Assembly: GCA_017403125.1 (NCBI GenBank)
Contig: JAFQOR010000027.1
Location: 1 to 62,231 of the forward strand
Direction of reading: 5' to 3'
Source of the DNA: Alistipes sp.
Lineage (GTDB): Bacteria > Bacteroidota > Bacteroidia > Bacteroidales > Rikenellaceae
DNA: 62,231 bases
The translations under genes were made by a program, and so were the position numbers. Position 1 is the first letter of the stretch. Each line of letters begins with the position of its first letter. A model generated the notes under the pieces. That model was not told the DNA's origin. It worked only from the letters and a program-made list of their open reading frames with translations, and did not search any database. Positions 1-61,972 of this stretch are shown here, in pieces.

Positions 1-366
1 AATAACGCGGCTCAACCGCGACCCTCGAACGCCCCTTTCAGGGGTTGGGGGTGTGAATATGAAAACTGCGCGAAGCGCGGGTTCGAGCCCCGTCTGCCGC
101 TCCAAAGGAGCCAATAACGCGGCTCAACCGCGACCCTCGAACGCCCCTTTCAGGGGTTGGGGGTGTGAATATGAAAACTGCGCGAAGCGCGGGTTCGAGC
201 CCCGTCTGCCGCTCCGAAGGAGCCCATAACGCGGCTCAACCGCGACCCTCGAACGCCCCTTTCAGGGGTTGGGGGTGTGAATATGAAAACTGCACGAAGC
301 GCGGGTTCGAGCCCCGTCTGCCGCTCCGGAGGAGCCAATAACGTGGCTCAACCGCGACTCTCGAAC
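1..366. repeat. Tandem 112-bp repeats with tRNA-Gly-like 3' ends
   Basis: Three complete near-identical 112-bp copies (1-112, 113-224, 225-336) and a partial fourth (337 to about 366). The end of each copy matches a tRNA 3' end: a T-arm GCGGG-TTCGAGC-CCCGT, acceptor strand CTGCCGC, then TCC. The U discriminator and the tail resemble bacterial tRNA-Gly. No D-arm or anticodon arm lies in front of it; instead there is CCCCTTTCAGGGG and a GCGCGAAGCGC hairpin. The copies are therefore tRNA tails, not tRNA genes. The parent tRNA may lie left of base 1, which I cannot see. Confidence 0.85.
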
Positions 367-429
367 GATAGTTATAGAGAATATAATGAATTTAGTGAGT
401 ATGATGTATAAGTCGTTGAAGTAAAAAAC

Positions 430-37577: not shown

Positions 37578-37622
37578 AATGGGAAAATGGGAATTTCCCT
37601 ATGTTTTTCCCATTTTCCCATT
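37578..37622. repeat. 45-bp palindromic element A
   Basis: Arms AATGGGAAAATGGGAA (37578-37593) and TTCCCATTTTCCCATT (37607-37622) are perfect complements around the 13-nt loop TTTCCCTATGTTT. Confidence 0.85.
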
Positions 37623-37951
37623 GAGCATCGCGCCTCCATGGGTTATCGGCAAAGTACTGACGTGGTGTGTAGTGATAATTATCAAGATGATTACATTTAC
37701 CCACGTTATCCGAGAGATACCTGTTATTGTTATGCGTATCAATATAACGTGTAAATGTATGTTTGCTCTCCACACTGCGGAGAGCGATGTCGAGTGCTGC
37801 GACCACGATACTTATCAAGAATATATCTATATTCGTTCATACTATCTTACTCGTTGATACTATATTACATATATTATTTTCTGTTGCTACTTACGGTGCG
37901 TAGAGCTCCAAGGAGGGTGATTTAGGTCAAGGAGAAAGTCCCTTCTTTTGA

Positions 37952-38135
37952 CACTCTTTCTCCGCCCTTTGATGCCCCTTTCCCCAATGGGAAAATGGGA
38001 AAAACATAGGGAAATTCCCATTTTCCCATTCCCCCCTCCAAGCCACTCTTTCTCCGCCCTTTGATGCCCCTTTTCGCAATGGGAATTTGGGAAAAACATA
38101 GGGAAATTCCCATTTTCCCATTCCCATTTTTCCCG
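37952..38135. repeat. Duplicated 92-bp block with palindromes B and C
   Basis: CACTCTTTCTCCGCCCTTTG recurs at 37952 and 38044, an offset of 92 bp. Each block holds a palindrome: B (37986-38030) with the same arms as element A but the loop inverted (AAACATAGGGAAA), and C (38078-38122), whose left arm is AATGGGAATTTGGGAA and right arm TTCCCATTTTCCCATT, so it is imperfect. Confidence 0.85.
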
Positions 38136-39731: not shown

Positions 39732-41354
39732 CTATTTTACCACTTTCAGCACCTCGCCATTGTCTGCGGCTACGGCACGCTTCCACGCCTCGGTGTAGCC
39801 GGGCTGCTCAATCTTGCCGGGTATATCTTTGCCGTTGCCGTTGTCGATGAAGCCGTTCTGGTCTTCGCCCTTGATGTTGCCATCTATGTACTTAACCATA
39901 AGGTATTTGTCGAGCTCTACCCACTTGTCGAAGAGCTGCTGTGCCGAGGCTACCGTAAACTCCGTTGCAATCTTTTTAGCCCTCTTGGGCGCATCGGCAA
40001 TAGCCTTATCCGTAATTTGGATCTGCTCAATCATGGCGTTTTCCCACTTATCAACCTCCTCACGTACGTGCTTGCCGATAATGTTATAGCGCAAGTATGC
40101 AAACTGTGCTATGCGGTTCGTAATCCAGAACATCGAGCTATCCGAATATTTAAGCATCGTGCCATTGCCCTCCTTCAAGCACTCGGGAACCTCGGTAGAG
40201 GTGACATAGACGGGTGTCAGGGGTGATGTTGCAGCATCGTCGGTGCCAAACCAAAGGATACCCACCTTGCCCGGACGTGCCTGACCTACGAGCCAGAAGC
40301 CTGTCTGCTGCGTAGCCGTAGCACGCTCGTTGCAGTACTCCACGCCATCAACCTCGAAGTACATCGGACGCCAACGATAGGGGCACTGCTCGCCACCTGC
40401 GCCAAAATCCTGTGTCATATCCATAGGCGTACCCTCGTAGTGGTCGCGCATGGCATCCATAAGCATCTTAACGGTCACCTTCTGGCGGGGCATAACCCAC
40501 AGAGGCATGCGGTTCTGCTTGTTGTGTCCCATAGCGTAGTCCACATATTGGTCCATGTCGTCGGCTACCATGCGGAAGAAACTCCATACACGAGCCTCGC
40601 AACCACGCATAGCACCAAAGTCGAGCGGAGCATAGGCATCGGCAAAGCTGAAATCCTTGTCCTCGCCCTCGAACCAGCCGAACTTACGAGCTACGTCCGC
40701 AACATCCGGAGCATAGATGCAGTTCTCGGGGTCATCCCAGGGGAATGTCGTGATGCGTGCTTGGTTGGCGTGTGCCGAAACATAGCCATCGGGGATGCGA
40801 CGAGCAACCCATACGATACCCTTATCCTCGGGACCCTTGCCAATGAGCTCCATAATCCACGCCTCCTCGGTATCGATGAGCGAGAACGACTCGCCCGACG
40901 AGCAGTAACCATAGGTGTTTGCCAACTCCACGATGATGTCGATAGCCTCACGTGCGGTCTTTGCACGTTGCAGCGTGATGTATATCAACGAGCCGTAGTC
41001 GATGCCACCCTTGGGGTCTTCGAGCTCGGGACGTCCACCAAATGTTGTCTCGGTGATAAATAGCGAATGTTCGTTCGAGTTACTCAGGGTGCGGTATGTC
41101 ACTTGCGCCTGGCTTATCTGACCCAGATAGCGACCCGTATCCCACTCCGTAACATCCATTAAGGCTGTGTATTTGCCGGGAACGTAGCTGTAAAGCGAGC
41201 CATAGAGGCCATGCGAGTCGGCAGCGTAGGTTACCATGTTAGAGCCGTCGGCCGAGGCCCCCTTTGTGATGATAAAGTTCGTGCAGGCATCGGCAGTAGC
41301 TATCGAGCCTATGAATGCGCCCACAAGGGCAATCGTCTTGAATAGTTTGTTCAT
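39732..41354 (-). CDS. C69 family dipeptidase
   Basis: A 540-residue exported Ntn-hydrolase of the PepD type. A signal peptide (MNKLFKTIALVGAFIGSIAT, then ADA) is followed directly by the catalytic Cys24 in ACTNFIITKGASADGS, so cleavage would expose the nucleophile. Other family stretches are TYAADSHGLYGSLY, GYCSSGESFSLIDTEEAWIMELIGKG and HANQARI. It likely trims peptides in the periplasm. The end is a helical region with DKWVELDKYLMVKY. Confidence 0.92.
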   Translation of the reverse strand: MNKLFKTIALVGAFIGSIATADACTNFIITKGASADGSNMVTYAADSHGLYGSLYSYVPGKYTALMDVTEWDTGRYLGQISQAQVTYRTLSNSNEHSLFITETTFGGRPELEDPKGGIDYGSLIYITLQRAKTAREAIDIIVELANTYGYCSSGESFSLIDTEEAWIMELIGKGPEDKGIVWVARRIPDGYVSAHANQARITTFPWDDPENCIYAPDVADVARKFGWFEGEDKDFSFADAYAPLDFGAMRGCEARVWSFFRMVADDMDQYVDYAMGHNKQNRMPLWVMPRQKVTVKMLMDAMRDHYEGTPMDMTQDFGAGGEQCPYRWRPMYFEVDGVEYCNERATATQQTGFWLVGQARPGKVGILWFGTDDAATSPLTPVYVTSTEVPECLKEGNGTMLKYSDSSMFWITNRIAQFAYLRYNIIGKHVREEVDKWENAMIEQIQITDKAIADAPKRAKKIATEFTVASAQQLFDKWVELDKYLMVKYIDGNIKGEDQNGFIDNGNGKDIPGKIEQPGYTEAWKRAVAADNGEVLKVVK

Positions 41355-41448
41355 ACTTTCTGATGCAATGTTATGCTTGTTAGTGTTAGTATTATTTATA
41401 TATTAGGTTCGAAAAATCTCCGAAAGATACAAAATTATTTCGAAATAG

Positions 41449-41479
41449 TTGTAACGTTGCCCTATATTTTGTACTTTTG
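41449..41479 (+). promoter_or_regulatory. Promoter for the yggS-like gene
   Basis: TTG 41449-41451, spacer 20, TACTTTTG 41472-41479. Confidence 0.6.
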
Positions 41480-41502
41480 TACAATAAATAGAGCTAAAAC
41501 TT

Positions 41503-42162
41503 ATGAGCATAGCACAGCGTCTTGACGACATACGTCGCACATTGCCTGCGGGCGTAAGTCTTGTTGCAGTATCAAAGTTTCACCCCTCGGAGCGTATTAT
41601 GGAGGCTTACGAGGCTGGTCAGCGTCTCTTTGGCGAGAGCCGTCCACAGGAGATGGCAGCCAAGGCGGCGGAACTCCCGCGAGATATAGAGTGGCTGATG
41701 ATAGGTCACCTGCAAACCAATAAGGTCAAACTCATAGCCCCCTTCGTGTCGATGATTACGTCGGTGGATTCCGAGCGCCTCATAGCCGAAATCGAGAAGC
41801 AGGCAGAGCGCTGTAATCGTCAGATAGATATACTCTTGGAGGTGCACGTGGCGAGCGAAGAGAGTAAGTCGGGCTGGGATATAGACGAGCTTCGCAGCTA
41901 CCTTGCGTCGGGAGTGTTGGCGCAGATGTCGCATGTGCGTGTCAGGGGCGTTATGACTATCGCCACGAATAGTGACGACGAGCGTGTTGTGCGCGGTGAC
42001 TTTGAGCGCATACGCCATATCTACGAGGAACTTAAACCGGGTTTCGACGCGAACTTCGATACACTCTCCATAGGCATGTCCGACGACTATCCCATAGCCT
42101 TGGAATATGGTACGACAATGGTTCGTGTCGGCACAGCCATCTTCGGCGCCAGAGAGTATTAA
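41503..42162 (+). CDS. YggS/PLPBP pyridoxal phosphate homeostasis protein
   Basis: A 219-residue single-domain alanine-racemase-like barrel that binds PLP and balances B6 and amino-acid pools; no reaction is known for the family. The PLP lysine lies in SLVAVSKFHP. Other markers are RLFGESRPQE, WLMIGHLQTNKVK, VRVRGVMTIA and the phosphate-binding LSIGMSDDYPIALEYGTTMVRVGTAIFG. Slightly short but complete. It is the last gene before the 2.1-kb repeat region. Confidence 0.95.
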   Translation: MSIAQRLDDIRRTLPAGVSLVAVSKFHPSERIMEAYEAGQRLFGESRPQEMAAKAAELPRDIEWLMIGHLQTNKVKLIAPFVSMITSVDSERLIAEIEKQAERCNRQIDILLEVHVASEESKSGWDIDELRSYLASGVLAQMSHVRVRGVMTIATNSDDERVVRGDFERIRHIYEELKPGFDANFDTLSIGMSDDYPIALEYGTTMVRVGTAIFGAREY

Positions 42163-42203
42163 GCGATACGAATAATACTATTTAATTTATTGTTGCGCTT
42201 CGG

Positions 42204-42248
42204 AATGGGAATTTGGGAAAACTCCTATGTTTTTCCCAAATTCCCATT
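42204..42248. repeat. 45-bp palindromic element D
   Basis: Arms AATGGGAATTTGGGAA (42204-42219) and TTCCCAAATTCCCATT (42233-42248) are perfect complements; loop AACTCCTATGTTT. Compared with A, both arms differ at matching places, so pairing is kept. Confidence 0.85.
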
Positions 42249-42270
42249 CCATTGTAGTGTAACCATGGCA

Positions 42271-42342
42271 GTTCTGCACTCGTCATCCAAGTGAGTTCTG
42301 CACTCGTCATACACGTGAGTTCTGCACTCGTCATCCAAGTGA
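42271..42342. repeat. Three tandem 24-bp units
   Basis: GTTCTGCACTCGTCATCCAA plus GTGA is repeated at 42271, 42295 and 42319; the middle copy differs at two or three bases. From there to about 42550 are loosely repeated CTTTGCTTGACGG and CTACTCTTTGC tracts. Confidence 0.85.
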
Positions 42343-42583
42343 GCTTTGCACCTCGGCTATGCTTTGCTTGCATGCGCTTTGCTTGACGGCAACGCGCTTG
42401 GGTCACTTTGCTCGACGGTGCAGCGTTTTAAGGGTGCAGCCCGCCCTTGCTACTTTTTCGCACTCTTTGCTACTCTTTGCTTGCCGGCAATGCGCTTTGA
42501 GTCCTTTGCTTGACGGAGCTATGTTTCAAAGGTGCAACCGCCATTGCTACTTTTTTCTTCCCCGTTATCTCCTCCTTCATCTC

Positions 42584-42629
42584 AATGGGAAAATGGGAAT
42601 CTACCTATGATTTTCCTATTTTCCCAATT
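42584..42629. repeat. 45-bp palindromic element E (diverged)
   Basis: Left arm AATGGGAAAATGGGAA, loop TCTACCTATGATT, right arm TTCCTATTTTCCCAATT with a change and a one-base insertion. Same loop orientation as A and D. Confidence 0.75.
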
Positions 42630-42632
42630 GTT

Positions 42633-44001
42633 GTGGGTATACTTTTGCCTACCCGCGTTTAGAGGAGGAGGGGGTTATTGCAACTGTAACTGTGACTGCT
42701 ACTGCGACCCTGACCGTGACTACGACTGCGACTACTATTCTACGCCACACAATTCTGTTGCGGGTATACTTTTATCTACCCGTGTTTAGGAGAAGTGATT
42801 GTAGTGGTAGTATTGCAACTGCAACTGCGACTGCGATTGTGACCCTTCATTACGTAATTTTATTGCGGGTATATTTTTGCCTACCCGCACTTGGCGAGAG
42901 GACTCTTCTGTATAAAATATTCATACAATGGCACGACCCTACACAACACGGGTATACTTTTGCCTACCCACATTATGATTGAGTCCAATATAGAGAGTTT
43001 TGTTGGTGTCCTTCATGGGTATCGGGGATGTTTTTTCTGCCAGTAAAATGGATGTAGCAGTGTTGTGGTGGAGTATCCTGTACCCATCTTCTCGCCGGAA
43101 TTCTTTTGCCCATGTAGGTATGGGTATTGTGGGGTCAGCATATTGTGCCTACTCTCTGTGCGGGTATACGTTTGCCTACCCGCGTTTGGATGTGGTTAGT
43201 AATTAAAGTTGGTGTGATACATCTCATTGCAGCTATACTTTTATCTACCCACATTTTAGTTGAAACAGATATAGTAAGTGCCGACAGCATTCTGTCGCGG
43301 TGATACTTTTGTCAGCCCATATAAGAGTGTCCGTATGATATGTATGGTAGTGTTCTTGTAGGTATACTTTTATCCGATAACATCAAAGCAGTGTCGGTTG
43401 GCTGGGCACGATGACACCTCTTTCTCTCTGTGCAGGTAGAAAAAAGTATACCAGCAATAGTATGAGTATGATTTGGAGAGAGATGGGTATTATTGGAAGT
43501 GCAATGTGCAGTGGGAAGGCGGGAGTTATTTTAACTTTAATGTGCGACGAAAGAGTAATATAAAGAATTTTACAAAGTCTTGTTGCCATACTGATACGGG
43601 TAGGCAAAAGTACACCCGCAACAGAATTGTATATCGTAGTCGTAGTCGCAGTCGCAGTCACAGTCACAGTCGCAGTCGCAGTCGCAGTCACGGTCACAGT
43701 TATAGTTACAATAACCCCCTCCTTCCCTAAACGCGGATAGGCAAAAGTATACCCGCAACAGAATTGTATATCGTAGAATCGTAGTTACAGTTGCAGTCAC
43801 AGTCGCAGTCACAGTCACAGTCACAGTCACGGTCACAGTTGCAGTTGCAATACCCCCCATCCCCTAAACGCGGGTAGGCAAAAGTATACCCACAATGAAA
43901 TTACATAATGTAGAGTCATAATCACGTTTACAGTTACAGTTACAGTTACAATAATCCCCTCCTCCTCTCCTAAACACGGGTAGATAAAAGTATGTCCGCG
44001 A
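42633..44001. repeat. Composite hairpin and hexanucleotide array in two orientations
   Basis: A recurring unit holds a hairpin (GCGGGTA, ten bases usually TACTTTTGCC, TACCCGC), a GTTTAG plus G-rich tract, a run of six-base repeats of the form AACTGY/GACTGY, and a linker ACGATATACAATTCTGTT. Forward hairpins start at 42633, 42760, 42865, 42949 and 43160, with weaker ones near 43231, 43297 and 43356. Reverse ones start near 43431 (weak), 43596, 43733, 43870 and 43976; the first three strong ones are 137 bp apart. Hexamer tracts: 42679-42738, 42813-42842, 43636-43711, 43775-43850, 43921-43950. No supported gene lies in 42163-44251. Confidence 0.85.
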
Positions 44002-44196
44002 CATGTGTTGAAATAGAGCTGTTGTATGTCTAACTCACCCGCCCCCTCCCCAAAAAAACATGTCTAAAAGCTTATAGTCATTTTGTCTGTCTGCAACAAT
44101 CGATATTCTTAACATGCTGGGCAATAGTATTTCCGGATGTAATAGTATGCGGTGTATGAAAGAAGTAGATAATTCCACAAAAAAATAGTGCGCCTA

Positions 44197-44227
44197 TTGC
44201 GGAGCCTTAACAAAATTTATATCTTTG
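44197..44227 (+). promoter_or_regulatory. Promoter for the small HTH gene
   Basis: TTG 44197-44199, spacer 20, TATCTTTG 44220-44227, 24 bp before the start codon. Confidence 0.65.
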
Positions 44228-44251
44228 TAAAAAAAAATAAAAAAGAGCGAT

Positions 44252-44479
44252 ATGGATAAGCAACTATCACTCCTCGAGCGTGAGAATCCTATTGGAGCGG
44301 TGTTTGAGAGGTTTCCCGAGCTGAACGTGAACTCAATAGCTCGCGATTTGGGTATTAACCCCAAGTTGATGCATCAGTATGTTAGTGGGCGCAAAAAGCC
44401 GTCGTATGAGCGTATGAGGGATATTGAACGCCATCTTCATGCGATAGGTGAGGAGTTGCTTAAAGTTCATATCGAGTAG
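44252..44479 (+). CDS. Small Xre-like helix-turn-helix protein
   Basis: A 75-residue protein made almost entirely of one HTH domain: NVNSIARDLGINPKLMHQYV followed by SGRKKPSYERMRDIERHLHAIGEELLKVHIE. The pattern (INPxLMxQYxSGxKxPS, then ERxLxxIGEELL) resembles the C-terminal DNA-binding part of HicB-type antitoxins of Bacteroidota, but there is no N-terminal HicB fold and no toxin gene beside it. It could be an independent small regulator or a remnant. It has a good promoter and borders the repeat array. Confidence 0.75.
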   Translation: MDKQLSLLERENPIGAVFERFPELNVNSIARDLGINPKLMHQYVSGRKKPSYERMRDIERHLHAIGEELLKVHIE

Positions 44480-44509
44480 AGGGAGTGTATTCCATTGCAA
44501 ATTTATTCA

Positions 44510-44517
44510 TATCTTTG
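44510..44517 (+). promoter_or_regulatory. Possible -7 element for truA
   Basis: TATCTTTG, about 22 bp before the likely GTG start; TTG at the expected -33 distance is missing. Confidence 0.4.
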
Positions 44518-44538
44518 CGGATATAAACAGTGATTAAC

Positions 44539-45270
44539 GTGCGATATTTCATAGAGTTACAATACGACGGGGCAGCATATTTTGGCTGGCAGCGACAGAC
44601 CGATGTGGTTACGGTGCAGGGTACAATAGAGCAGAAGCTGTCGATGCTCCTGCGACAACCGACCGAGATTGTGGGTGCGGGGCGAACAGATACGGGTGTC
44701 AATGCCTCGTTCTATGTGGCACACTTCGACTCTGCCTCTTGCATAGCCAACCTCGAACAGCTGAAATACAAACTCAACAAGGTTCTGCCCGATGACATTG
44801 CAATTTTGCGTATCTACGAGGTCGATGCCGCAAAGCATGCGCGATTCGATGCCCGCGAGAGGGAGTACACCTATCTGCTTACGTCGCATAAACAGCCGTT
44901 TCGTCGCTTCTCGGCATGGTATTTCGCTGTGGATTTGGATGTCGATAGCATGAATGAGGCAGCCTCAAAACTTCTCGAATACGATGATTTTACGACGTTT
45001 GCAAAGCTAAATTCTAACAATAAGACAAACATATGTCACATAACTCATGCATGCTGGGTTGTCGAGGCGGATGGCACGTTACGCTTTACGATTCGCGCAG
45101 ACCGTTTTTTGCGCAATATGGTGCGAGCTATCGTGGGTACGCTGGTGGATGTCGGGCGCGGCAGATACTCTGTCGAGGAGTTTGAGGATATAGTGCGGTC
45201 GCGCGATTTGTCGCGTTCGAGCGCCGGAGCTCCCGCCTGCGGACTCTTCCTGTCGGACGTGAAATATTAG
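44539..45270 (+). CDS. truA: tRNA pseudouridine synthase A
   Basis: Converts U38-U40 in tRNA anticodon stems to pseudouridine. The catalytic Asp is in GAGRTDTGVNA, with YDGAAYFGWQRQ near the start and FLRNMVRAIVGTLVDVGRGRY later. About 243 aa, normal. I choose GTG 44539 because MRYFIELQYDG aligns with the family start; GTG 44530 adds three residues. No ATG is available there. It is followed within 8 nt by the dnaK control region. Confidence 0.95.
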   Translation: MRYFIELQYDGAAYFGWQRQTDVVTVQGTIEQKLSMLLRQPTEIVGAGRTDTGVNASFYVAHFDSASCIANLEQLKYKLNKVLPDDIAILRIYEVDAAKHARFDAREREYTYLLTSHKQPFRRFSAWYFAVDLDVDSMNEAASKLLEYDDFTTFAKLNSNNKTNICHITHACWVVEADGTLRFTIRADRFLRNMVRAIVGTLVDVGRGRYSVEEFEDIVRSRDLSRSSAGAPACGLFLSDVKY

Positions 45271-45277
45271 GCTGTGG

Positions 45278-45383
45278 CTGACATTTTGTCAGTGGCGGTT
45301 GGTTTATGGTGACAGTTTTGTCACACAATACTAAATAAATGTGTCAGTTTTGGCACATTTTTTTGTTTGGTATGCCGTTTGCC
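45278..45383 (+). promoter_or_regulatory. Phased dyads and sigma-54-like element upstream of dnaK
   Basis: Three related dyads: CTGACA-TTT-TGTCAG (45278-45292), GTGACA-GTTT-TGTCAC (45309-45324) and GTGTCA-GTTT-TGGCAC (45341-45356). Their centres are about 31.5 and 32 bp apart, near three helical turns each. Downstream, TGGTATGCCGTTTGCC (45368-45383) has GG and GC separated by exactly ten bases, as in sigma-54 -24/-12 promoters. A start near 45394 would leave a leader of about 70 nt before dnaK. Regulator identity is unknown. Confidence 0.55.
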
Positions 45384-45464
45384 TCTTGCTATATCGACAT
45401 CGGGGGCGACAACCAGATGATTGAGAGTGTAAAATATGTAATTAACAAATAAAACTTTTAGACT

Positions 45465-47360
45465 ATGAGTAAGATTATTGGTATTGATTTAGGTACAACC
45501 AACTCATGTGTGGCTGTAATGGAGGGTAACGAGCCTGTGGTAATTCCCAACGCCGAGGGTCATCGTACAACGCCGTCGGTAGTTGCTTTTACCGAGGGTG
45601 GAGAGCGCAAGGTGGGTGATCCGGCAAAGCGTCAGGCTATCACTAACCCAAAGCGTACGGTGTTCTCTATCAAGCGTTTCATGGGTGAGCGTTATGACAA
45701 TGTTGCATCAGATATCGCACGTGCGCCCTATACTATCGTAAAGGGTGATAACAACACTCCGCGTGTCGAAATCGATGGTCGTCAATATACTCCGCAGGAG
45801 ATTTCGGCTATCACCTTGCAGAAGATGAAGAAGACTGCCGAGGATTATCTCGGACAGGAGGTTACGGAGGCTGTTATCACCGTGCCCGCATACTTCTCGG
45901 ACTCGCAGCGTCAGGCAACCAAGGAGGCTGGTGAGATTGCCGGTTTGAAGGTGCGTCGTATTATCAACGAGCCCACGGCAGCTGCTTTGGCATATGGCTT
46001 GGATAAGAAGCAGGACGAGATGAAGATTGCCGTATATGACCTTGGTGGTGGTACCTTCGATATCTCGATTTTGGAGCTTGGTGACGGTGTCTTTGAGGTT
46101 AAATCTACGAATGGCGATACGCACCTTGGTGGCGATGACTTCGACCACGTACTTATCGACTACATGGCAGAGGCATTCAAGGCCGAGCACCATATCGACC
46201 TTCGTCAGGACCCCATGGCGTTGCAGCGTTTGAAGGAGGCTGCTGAGAAGGCGAAGATTGAGCTCTCGTCGGCTACGACAACCGATATCAATCTTCCCTA
46301 CATCATGCCCGTGAACGGTATTCCCCAGCACCTTGTGATGTCGCTTACACGTGCCAAGTTCGAGCAGCTTTGCGACCACCTTGTGCAGAAGACTATCGAG
46401 CCTTGCCGCATTGCATTGCGCGACGCAGGCTTGCAGGCAAGTCAAATCGACGAGGTTATCCTCGTGGGTGGTTCGACACGTATTCCTGCCATCCAGAAGG
46501 TCGTTGAGGAGTTCTTTGGTAAGACCCCCAACCGTTCGGTAAATCCCGACGAGGTTGTTGCTGTGGGCGCTGCAATTCAAGGTGGTGTACTCACAGGCGA
46601 GGTCAAGGATGTGCTTTTGTTGGATGTTACTCCGCTGTCGCTCGGTATCGAGACTTTGGGTGGTGTATTCACGAAGCTCATCGAATCAAATACCACTATT
46701 CCTACGCGCAAGAGCGAGGTCTTCTCTACGGCTGCCGACAACCAGCCTTCGGTTGAGATTAACGTATGTCAGGGTGAGCGTCCCATGGCGCGTGACAACA
46801 AGTCTATCGGTCGTTTCCACCTCGATGGTATCCCCGCAGCACCGCGTGGTGTGCCCCAGATTGAGGTTACGTTCGACATCGACGCCAATGGTATTCTCAA
46901 CGTATCGGCAAAGGATAAGGGTACGGGTAAGGAGCAGAAGATTCGTATCGAAGCATCGAGTGGTCTTACCGAGCAGGAGATTCAGCGCATGCGCGACGAG
47001 GCAAAGGCAAACGAGGCGAAGGATAAGGCGGAGAAGGAGCGTGTGGATAAGGTGAATGCTGCCGACTCGAACATCTTTGCTACCGAGAAGCAACTCAAAG
47101 AGTATGGCGATAAGCTTCCTGCCGACAAGAAGGCGGCTATCGAGGAGGCTTTGGGCAAGCTCAAAGAGGCTCACAAGTCACAGGATATCGCGGCTATCGA
47201 CTCGTCGATTGAGGCTTTGAACGCTGCATGGCAGGCTGCATCACAGGATATCTATGCACAGCAGCAGGCACAGCAGGCACAGGGTCAGCCCACCGACGGT
47301 GCGCAGGGTGGTGCACAGCAGGCGCAGCCCGAGGACGTAGAGTTCGAGGAGGTGAAGTAG
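45465..47360 (+). CDS. dnaK: Chaperone DnaK (Hsp70)
   Basis: A 631-residue ATP-driven chaperone. ATPase domain to about residue 380: [36 protein letters not shown] and [11 protein letters not shown]. Substrate domain from [18 protein letters not shown], and a helical lid. The C-terminal tail is Gln/Ala-rich ([20 protein letters not shown]) and ends in EDVEFEEVK rather than the usual EEVD/K variant seen in some relatives. No grpE or dnaJ is adjacent. A terminator follows, so it is transcribed alone. Confidence 0.98.
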
Positions 47361-61946: not shown

Positions 61947-61972
61947 TGCGGGTATTAAAAATAATACCCGCA
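61947..61972. repeat. GCGGGTA-type hairpin outside the main array
   Basis: TGCGGGTATT, loop AAAAAT, AATACCCGCA: a perfect 10-bp stem whose arms resemble the GCGGGTA/TACCCGC arms of the 42.6-44.0 kb array. Confidence 0.6.

What the first reader, a model, noticed from the sequence alone, without database searches (positions are those of the whole stretch)
42633..44001. Composite hairpin-hexanucleotide array with a change of orientation
In a genome that otherwise leaves little space between genes, about 2.1 kb (42163-44251) has no convincing gene. It holds repeated units made of a GCGGGTA/TACCCGC hairpin around a TACTTTTGCC loop, a G-rich tract, a six-base repeat run and an ATATACAATTCTGTT linker. 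Forward units lie to about 43380 and reverse units from about 43430, so the whole is an imperfect inverted array. In the reverse half the hairpins at 43596, 43733 and 43870 are 137 bp apart. Loop bases are more constant than the flanks. It may be a structured RNA array, a protein-binding or partition locus, or the remains of a non-autonomous mobile element. None of these is proven.
Basis: partly seen in the sequence, partly recalled or inferred. Interest (0 to 1): 0.75.

Follow-up and report, generated by a model that had tools for sequence, protein, structure and literature searches.

The report
Binding-site array beside its DNA-binding gene
A gut bacterium carries a long row of repeated palindromes that look like docking sites for a tiny DNA-binding protein encoded right beside them, and related bacteria carry matching but different pairs of protein and repeat, which suggests a little-known kind of genetic unit.

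Summary
The repeats are real: 8 near-identical 20-bp palindromes (0 expected in shuffles) plus about 5 decayed ones, five clear copies facing one way, then three the other. They are best read as paired half-sites for a protein, not RNA hairpins. A 75-aa Cro/C1-like HTH gene starts at 44252, just after the array. In 180 same-genus genomes (Alistipes, inferred) 30 stand-alone relatives were found; 27 of 30 have 2-24 palindromes (GGGT-N12-ACCC) within 2.6 kb, the other 3 lie at contig ends. Long-frame, DUF2442-type relatives have no array (0 of 12 fetched of 23; 0 of 29 loci checked across the order). The palindrome's inner bases change with the recognition helix of the neighbouring protein, though only 1-2 such changes are phylogenetically independent. 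Within arrays the two halves do not compensate each other (807 pairs against 804 shuffled). The same sites occur in dispersed clusters. Recognition of the array by the neighbouring HTH is well supported by sequence comparison; what the complex does (chromosome organisation, regulation, selfish spread) is inference. The paper searches made found no description.

The parts
42635..42654 (+). palindromic site GGGTATACTTTTGCCTACCC, perfect copy
42762..42781 (+). palindromic site (right half ATCTACCC)
42867..42886 (+). palindromic site
42950..42969 (+). palindromic site, perfect copy
43162..43181 (+). palindromic site
43231..43250 (+). decayed palindromic site
43299..43318 (+). decayed palindromic site
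   Evidence: family D2
43360..43379 (+). decayed copy, little more than the left half-site
   Evidence: family D11
43434..43453 (-). decayed palindromic site, reverse orientation
43598..43617 (-). palindromic site, reverse orientation
43735..43754 (-). palindromic site, reverse orientation, 137 bp on
43872..43891 (-). palindromic site, reverse orientation, perfect copy, 137 bp on
43978..43997 (-). decayed palindromic site, reverse orientation
43634..43700 (.). six-base repeat run (TCGCAG) in the spacer between sites
43783..43839 (.). six-base repeat run (AGTCAC) in the spacer between sites
44197..44227 (+). promoter-like TTG-N20-TATCTTTG (Bacteroidetes -33/-7 consensus, recalled); its -7 box lies 222 bp after the last decayed site and 328 bp after the last clear one
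   Evidence: read; consensus recalled, not tested
44252..44479 (+). 75-aa stand-alone Cro/C1-like HTH protein, proposed to bind the sites; predicted recognition helix residues 37-45 (PKLMHQYVS)
   Evidence: homologues under selection
61950..61969 (-). lone dispersed site GGGTATTATTTTTAATACCC, the motif of the array at the second HTH paralogue of this genome (contig C16)

Best explanation
The array is a cluster of about 8 clear and 5 decayed double-stranded binding sites (two GGGTNNNN half-sites around a T/A tract) for dimers of the small HTH protein encoded at 44252-44479. Protein and array form one genetic unit, found in many positions in genomes of this genus, and further clusters of the same kind of site lie elsewhere on the chromosome. 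Supported here by comparative sequence evidence, not by biochemistry: gene-array linkage, conservation of the site, matching of site bases to recognition-helix residues, purifying selection on homologous genes. Inferred: the protein, homologous to the HTH part of DUF2442 (DhiA-type) antitoxins but without a toxin partner beside it, loads onto the array as dimers, and the local cluster serves as a high-occupancy platform that buffers or autoregulates the protein and lets it bridge its dispersed clusters, as a small chromosome-organising or silencing protein. My estimates: recognition about 0.85; autoregulation or titration about 0.5; chromosome organisation about 0.3. Arrays grow by tandem duplication; how clusters reach new places is unknown. 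The confidence below is for recognition of the array by the HTH as one unit, not for the inferred function.
For: Linkage: 27 of 30 stand-alone HTH genes have 2-24 sites within 2.6 kb; the 3 without have a contig end 90-393 bp upstream. This holds across about 17 gene neighbourhoods (grouping by blastp and by eye). Controls: 0 of 12 fetched (of 23 found) long-frame HTH loci in the genus have 2 or more sites, one has 1; 6 of the 12 are cut by a contig end within 1.3 kb. 0 of 29 order-search loci, about 1.5 kb each side, have 2 or more. Specificity over 27 loci: Arg at the first variable helix position with C7 in the site 6 of 6, others 1 of 21; His/Tyr with purine at 7, 4 of 4, others 0 of 23; Asn at the next residue with G8 (over 30% of half-sites), 5 of 5, others 1 of 22. 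Those residues (H41, Q42 in the window protein) lie in AlphaFold helix 37-45, the second helix of the HTH (mean pLDDT 88). Paralogues in one genome have different array motifs, like those of their relatives elsewhere (G000a/b, G021a/b, G064a/b, G082a/b, G127a/b/c). Conservation of the site: the inner 8 bases, not fixed in the search pattern, are more alike than the 11-40 bp flanks in 25 of 25 arrays and more than the 1-10 bp flanks in 24 of 25. Genome level: 23 of 23 genomes with the stand-alone gene have at least 4 exact sites, against 16 of 157 without it. Gene: dN/dS 0.03-0.08 in 5 of 8 pairs, 3 saturated.
Against: Only 1-2 helix/site changes are phylogenetically independent, so the specificity association cannot reach significance after correcting for descent. 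G127c (Gln but C7) and G021b (G8 without Asn) break the simple code. 16 genomes carry 4 or more sites but no stand-alone gene was found at E <= 0.01; two of them are 97-98% complete (G109, G063). In the window the sites do not overlap the promoter-like sequence, and in 3 loci (G079, G082b, G127b) the array lies only downstream of the gene, so simple autorepression is not obvious. No binding data exist. Dispersed copies show some excess complementarity outside the core (z 2.3-3.5 for outer positions 1-4 in 4 sets), which protein binding does not explain.
Confidence: 0.82

Rival explanations
1. A structured RNA (or single-stranded DNA) hairpin array: each unit acts as a folded stem-loop in transcripts.
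For: Dyad symmetry; dispersed copies have excess outer-stem complementarity (G131 z 2.7 and 2.2, G101 z 2.3 and 2.7 for outer positions 1-4 and 5-10; this genome 2.5 and 1.1; named contigs 3.5 and 0.4), and 9 of 21 intergenic dispersed sites in G131/G101 lie between convergent genes, as a terminator would. Two of 27 arrays exceed their own shuffles for inner pairing (G143a p 0.009, G127a p 0.018).
Against: Over all 27 arrays no left-right compensation (807 observed, 804.2 sd 8.3 shuffled, p 0.40); window sites pair at 14 of 32 inner positions; for outer positions 1-4 the 24 HTH-linked sets have z -1.7 to 1.8 and the window array -1.3; both orientations relative to the gene; no Rfam match at gathering score in 41000-45500; no U-run after the window units (read).
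Confidence: 0.07
2. A selfish interspersed repeat: the clusters spread by their own copying (unknown recombinase or template switching), and the HTH protein is a silencer or a domesticated repressor of the repeat.
For: Clusters at many intergenic places in one genome, some sharing spacer sequence; patchy distribution of the gene (23 of 180 genomes); about 17 neighbourhoods for 30 genes.
Against: No Y1_Tnp transposase found in own plus 22 same-genus genomes; other transposase families were not searched, and target duplications or element ends were not looked for. Protein conserved and matched to its sites, which a bystander need not be. Not exclusive of the best explanation.
Confidence: 0.25
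3. A centromere-like partition locus: the HTH is a single-protein segregation factor and the array its centromere.
For: Array next to the gene for its likely binder, upstream only in 14 loci, downstream only in 3, both sides in 10, somewhat as in plasmid partition loci (recalled).
Against: No ParA/TubZ-type partner was seen by eye among the neighbours printed, which are mostly housekeeping genes that differ from locus to locus; several paralogues and up to dozens of dispersed sites per genome.
Confidence: 0.12
4. A local, unselected tandem expansion with no function.
For: Hexamer runs and tandem units show slippage; within about 1.5 kb of truA none of 21 same-genus relatives has the HTH gene or an array, one having a single site-like match.
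Against: The same site family, at 4 or more copies, in 39 of 180 genomes; core conserved while spacers diverge in 25 of 25 arrays.
Confidence: 0.03

Closest known systems
HipB and its operators (type II toxin-antitoxin autoregulation)
   Same: Cro-like HTH dimer binding a cluster of palindromes; HipB binds four operators TATCC-N8-GGATA in the hipBA promoter region (PMC3920265, passages seen); HipB and HigA2 chains are among the Foldseek matches of the window protein model.
   Different: Here no toxin gene was seen beside it, up to 24 sites per locus, arrays also lie downstream of the gene, and sites are dispersed; Foldseek matches are weak (none at E <= 0.001).
DhiTA (DUF4160 toxin / DUF2442 antitoxin)
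   Same: The stand-alone HTH is homologous to the C-terminal part of DUF2442 proteins; the DUF4160 protein beside one of them matches the DhiT model below its cut-off (48.2 bits of 100); dhiTA is an experimentally shown TA pair (PMC8198452, passages seen).
   Different: The stand-alone protein has no DUF2442 match and no DUF4160 neighbour was seen by eye; of the loci checked only stand-alone forms have arrays.
REP elements and RAYT transposases (REPtrons)
   Same: Short extragenic palindromes, dispersed and in clusters, with a cognate protein encoded next to some of them (PMC3733652, passages seen).
   Different: Cognate gene is an HTH, not a tyrosine transposase; no Y1_Tnp found in 23 genomes of this genus incl. 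own; no constant GTAG or CGTC tag seen (by eye).
Neisserial dRS3 / intergenic mosaic elements
   Same: 20-bp inverted repeats with RS elements of 30-160 bp in intergenic arrays of 200-2700 bp (PMC3898611, passages seen).
   Different: dRS3 is ATTCCC-N8-GGGAAT and its main form a phage integration target; here GGGT-N12-ACCC with an adjacent HTH gene.

Membership tests
Cro/C1-type (XRE) HTH proteins | HTH sequence profile and fold | tested here: inconclusive
   Window protein: HTH_19 and HTH_31 hits below their curated cut-offs; among the 14 proteins scanned HTH_31 matches 10 and HTH_3 7 at E <= 1, cut-offs not shown. AlphaFold gives a helical fold with an HTH; Foldseek best hits are XRE/antitoxin-type proteins, prob up to 0.99 but E >= 0.1.
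DUF2442/DhiA-type antitoxins | DUF2442 domain | tested here: not met
   PF10387 is found in both long relatives tested but is not among the 4 families of the window protein or the 16 families listed for 14 stand-alone proteins.
DUF2442/DhiA-type antitoxins | adjacent toxin gene | tested here: not met
   Window neighbours are a YggS-like and a truA-like gene (names by recall from translations); DUF4160-like genes were seen by eye only beside long forms in the loci read (one confirmed by Pfam). Unknown toxins were not searched for.
REP/RAYT (REPtron) | Y1_Tnp (RAYT) gene | tested here: not met
   0 of 23 genomes of the genus incl. own (88% complete); 12 of 14 genomes of other families in the same search rang.
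REP/RAYT (REPtron) | unpaired GTAG or CGTC tag at one end | tested here: not met
   Flanks of the window and dispersed cores show no such constant tag (printed); by eye, no statistical test.
dRS3/NIME | ATTCCC-N8-GGGAAT core | tested here: not met
   Core is GGGT-N12-ACCC.
dRS3/NIME | target of a filamentous phage integrase | not tested
   No search for prophage junctions was made.
Partition (par) locus | motor NTPase partner gene | tested here: inconclusive
   None seen by eye among the neighbours printed; no family search of all neighbours. Single-protein partition systems would not need one (recalled).
Partition (par) locus | stabilises or positions a replicon | not testable with these tools
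   Needs an experiment.
Structured RNA / intrinsic terminator | stem maintained by compensatory change | tested here: not met
   for inner stems of the 27 HTH-linked arrays taken together (2 of 27 exceed their own shuffles); dispersed copies show a modest outer-stem excess, so the question is open for those.

The most novel reading that the evidence does not exclude
A new class of bacterial repeat family whose partner gene is not a transposase but a toxin-free antitoxin-type HTH protein: protein and palindrome array evolve as a matched pair, occur in new places together, multiply into paralogous pairs with distinct specificities in one cell, and seed dispersed site clusters, forming a simple sequence-specific chromatin-like or centromere-like system.
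Probability: 0.35. Interest if true: 0.85.

Novelty: new variant of a known kind. Interest (0 to 1): 0.7.

Why it matters
It offers a natural series of matched HTH-operator pairs (about eight site types among close homologues, in several genomes two or three at once) from which recognition rules and specificity changes can be read. It gives a concrete partner for an otherwise unexplained class of extragenic palindromes, and shows a likely path by which an antitoxin DNA-binding domain leaves its toxin and takes up many chromosomal sites. If the complex organises DNA, it would be a very small accessory chromosome protein in gut Alistipes. The arrays also often sit at contig ends, so they may explain breaks in these assemblies.

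Tried and rejected
Rfam (41000-45500): one sub-threshold hit (mir-5890 at 42192-42257, 28.4 bits against a cut-off of 54), dismissed as chance; it lies outside the array, over the TTCCCA palindrome. RAYT origin: rejected for lack of Y1_Tnp. Strand bias with GC skew: none in 49 loci (p 0.57). Depletion of clusters from divergent gene pairs: 5 of 44 flanked clusters, against 42 of 166 background gaps with a crude ORF caller; weak, not used (of 82 clusters 29 were at edges and 9 in ORFs). HTH search in 21 site-bearing genomes without the gene: no stand-alone HTH at E <= 0.01, one C-terminal remnant in G150; motif searches of ORFs beside 26 further fetched stretches gave no HTH that I accepted. 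Yersinia pekkanenii hit (L085): only stretches of up to 44 bp around the palindrome match, taken as chance or a terminator. Conserved position: within about 1.5 kb of truA, 21 of 21 same-genus relatives have neither the HTH gene nor an array (one has a single site-like match), but they also lack the yggS-like and dnaK-like neighbours there, so this is no clean empty-site comparison. The mutual-information scan mis-assigned two rows (G064a, G154), so it is not used; the tables are keyed by name. Paper searches for a prior description: listings only (18 papers, two of them opened for passages; 1, not opened; 9, none opened); no papers at all.

Full report
What is there. The window (contig C25 of a 1.84-Mb draft genome, 88% complete) holds 8 copies of a 20-bp near-palindrome, GGGTATACTTTTGCCTACCC with up to 3 mismatches, where 100 shuffles give none, plus about five decayed copies. 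The gene-free stretch ends at 44252, where a 75-aa HTH protein begins.

A genome-wide family. In the same genome a loose pattern (up to 3 mismatches) gives 38 + 42 matches against 5 + 6 for the reversed control; the main dispersed form, GGGTATTATTTTTARTACCC, has 40 copies with at most 1 mismatch and no control hits. Many lie in intergenic clusters with different spacers, several at contig ends. The exact pattern GGGTNNNNTTTTNNNNACCC occurs in 71 of 180 same-genus genomes, with 54 copies here. Single hits are near chance: by my reading of that table the reversed control also hits 29 of 180 genomes, at most 3 times. 39 of 180 have at least 4.

The partner gene. A search with the HTH protein in 61 genomes of the genus found relatives beside palindrome arrays in other species. 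A profile of 14 of them found 53 matches in 37 of 180 genomes: 30 stand-alone HTH genes (E <= 4.4e-30, in 23 genomes) and 23 weaker matches, 22 of them in frames of 137 aa or more and one cut by a contig end. 27 of the 30 have 2 to 24 sites within 2.6 kb, 270 sites in all. The remaining three (G024a, G154, G122b) have a contig end 194, 90 and 393 bp upstream, so their arrays may be lost in assembly; that is inference. Of 12 of the 23 long-frame loci fetched, none has two sites and one has one; 6 of these 12 are cut by a contig end within 1.3 kb. Across a sample of the order, 38 of 393 genomes had matches; apart from this genome's own two, the listed frames are 132-173 aa, and 0 of 29 loci checked (about 1.5 kb each side) have two sites. 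Pfam finds DUF2442 in both long proteins tested, ahead of the part that matches the HTH profile, and DUF4160 in the small protein next to one of them; DUF4160/DUF2442 is the DhiTA toxin-antitoxin pair of Dickeya (PMC8198452, passages seen).

Matching of protein and site. The arrays share GGGT...ACCC but differ inside by lineage: ATTA, ACTA/GTTA, ATCT/ACCT, ATTG/ATTA, ATCG, TACA/TACG, AGGT, ATAC/AGGC. Over the 27 loci, Arg at the first variable recognition-helix residue goes with C at site position 7 in 6 of 6 (others 1 of 21), His/Tyr with a purine there in 4 of 4 (others 0 of 23), Asn at the next residue with G at position 8 in 5 of 5 (others 1 of 22). Treekit finds only one or two independent contrasts, so these counts are not independent trials (tree). 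AlphaFold (mean pLDDT 88) places the residues in helix 37-45, the second helix of the HTH. Paralogues in one genome have different array motifs, each like those of related genes elsewhere.

Why not a hairpin. If pairing were selected, left and right halves should compensate within an array. Shuffling right halves among copies gives 804.2 (sd 8.3) Watson-Crick pairs, 807 observed (p 0.40); two arrays (G143a, G127a) exceed their own shuffles at p 0.009 and 0.018, and G127b falls far below (15 against 27.0). In the window array 14 of 32 inner positions pair. By T-tract, 4 arrays face one way, 10 the other and 13 are mixed relative to the gene. Against this, dispersed copies do show extra complementarity just outside the core: outer positions 1-4 z 2.7 (G131), 2.3 (G101), 2.5 (this genome), 3.5 (named contigs, a set that includes some HTH-linked arrays), while 24 HTH-linked sets range from -1.7 to 1.8 and the window array is -1.3. 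In G131 and G101, 22 dispersed copies (two with the same flanks, perhaps one copy assembled twice) are 99.5% alike in the core and 27% alike at 11-50 bp; 9 of 21 intergenic ones lie between convergent genes by a crude ORF caller. Those copies may double as terminators or be shaped by template switching.

Gene and place. HTH homologues are under purifying selection (dN/dS 0.03-0.08 in five pairs, two of which share a member; three more pairs, one with the window gene, had saturated dS). The 30 genes lie in about 17 neighbourhoods (groESL, htpG, fba, lepA and others; names by recall from translations). Near truA, 21 same-genus relatives have neither gene nor array.

What it does. I think dimers of the HTH load onto these sites; the local array buffers or regulates the protein, and dispersed clusters are its targets, most simply for organising or silencing DNA. 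This step is inference. 23 of 23 genomes with the stand-alone gene have at least 4 exact sites, but so do 16 of 157 without it, two of them nearly complete; that leaves room for loss of the gene, assembly gaps, other binders, or selfish spread.

Known or new. Palindromic operator clusters for antitoxins of this fold are known (HipB, four operators, PMC3920265, passages seen), as are REP repeats with a cognate transposase (PMC3733652, passages seen) and neisserial mosaic arrays (PMC3898611, passages seen). A stand-alone antitoxin-type HTH paired with its own long, co-varying arrays and dispersed sites was not found in the searches listed under Tried and rejected; in a study of structured RNAs in human microbiomes (PMC8040213, passages seen) Alistipes is named once, for another motif.

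Noticed in passing
window 37578-38122 and 42584-42599: A second palindromic family, TTCCCATTTTCCCATT in facing pairs, has 6 matches (all exact, 1 mismatch allowed) in the whole held genome, all within this 5-kb part of the window.
   Followed up: partly
window 1-367: 3.3 copies of a 112-bp tandem repeat, 97% matches, containing GGTTCGAGCCCCGTCTGCCGCTCC, which resembles a tRNA 3' end (recalled), though ARAGORN finds no tRNA in the window.
   Followed up: no
window 42270-42351 and 42377-42555: 24-bp and 98-bp tandem repeats just before the array; similar CTTTGCTTGGCGG-like stretches occur elsewhere in this genome.
   Followed up: no
L151, L154, L156, L166 (groEL-like), L149, L150, L152 (htpG-like), L161 (FKBP-like), window 45465-47360 (dnaK-like): The HTH-array pair often lies near chaperone genes: groEL-like in 4 loci, htpG-like in 3, an FKBP-like gene in 1, dnaK-like about 1 kb downstream in the window. 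May be chance or a hint of stress regulation (names by recall).
   Followed up: no
L010, L009, L015 (G000 contigs C9, C6, C8): Composite dispersed arrays mix three site types (ATTA, TTAC/AGGC-like, AGAT/AGAA-like), in L010 in repeating super-units of about 230 bp, as if both HTH paralogues of this genome could bind one array.
   Followed up: partly
L217 (G150:C23): A C-terminal remnant of a stand-alone HTH next to a short-period repeat run, apparently a decayed copy of the gene.
   Followed up: no
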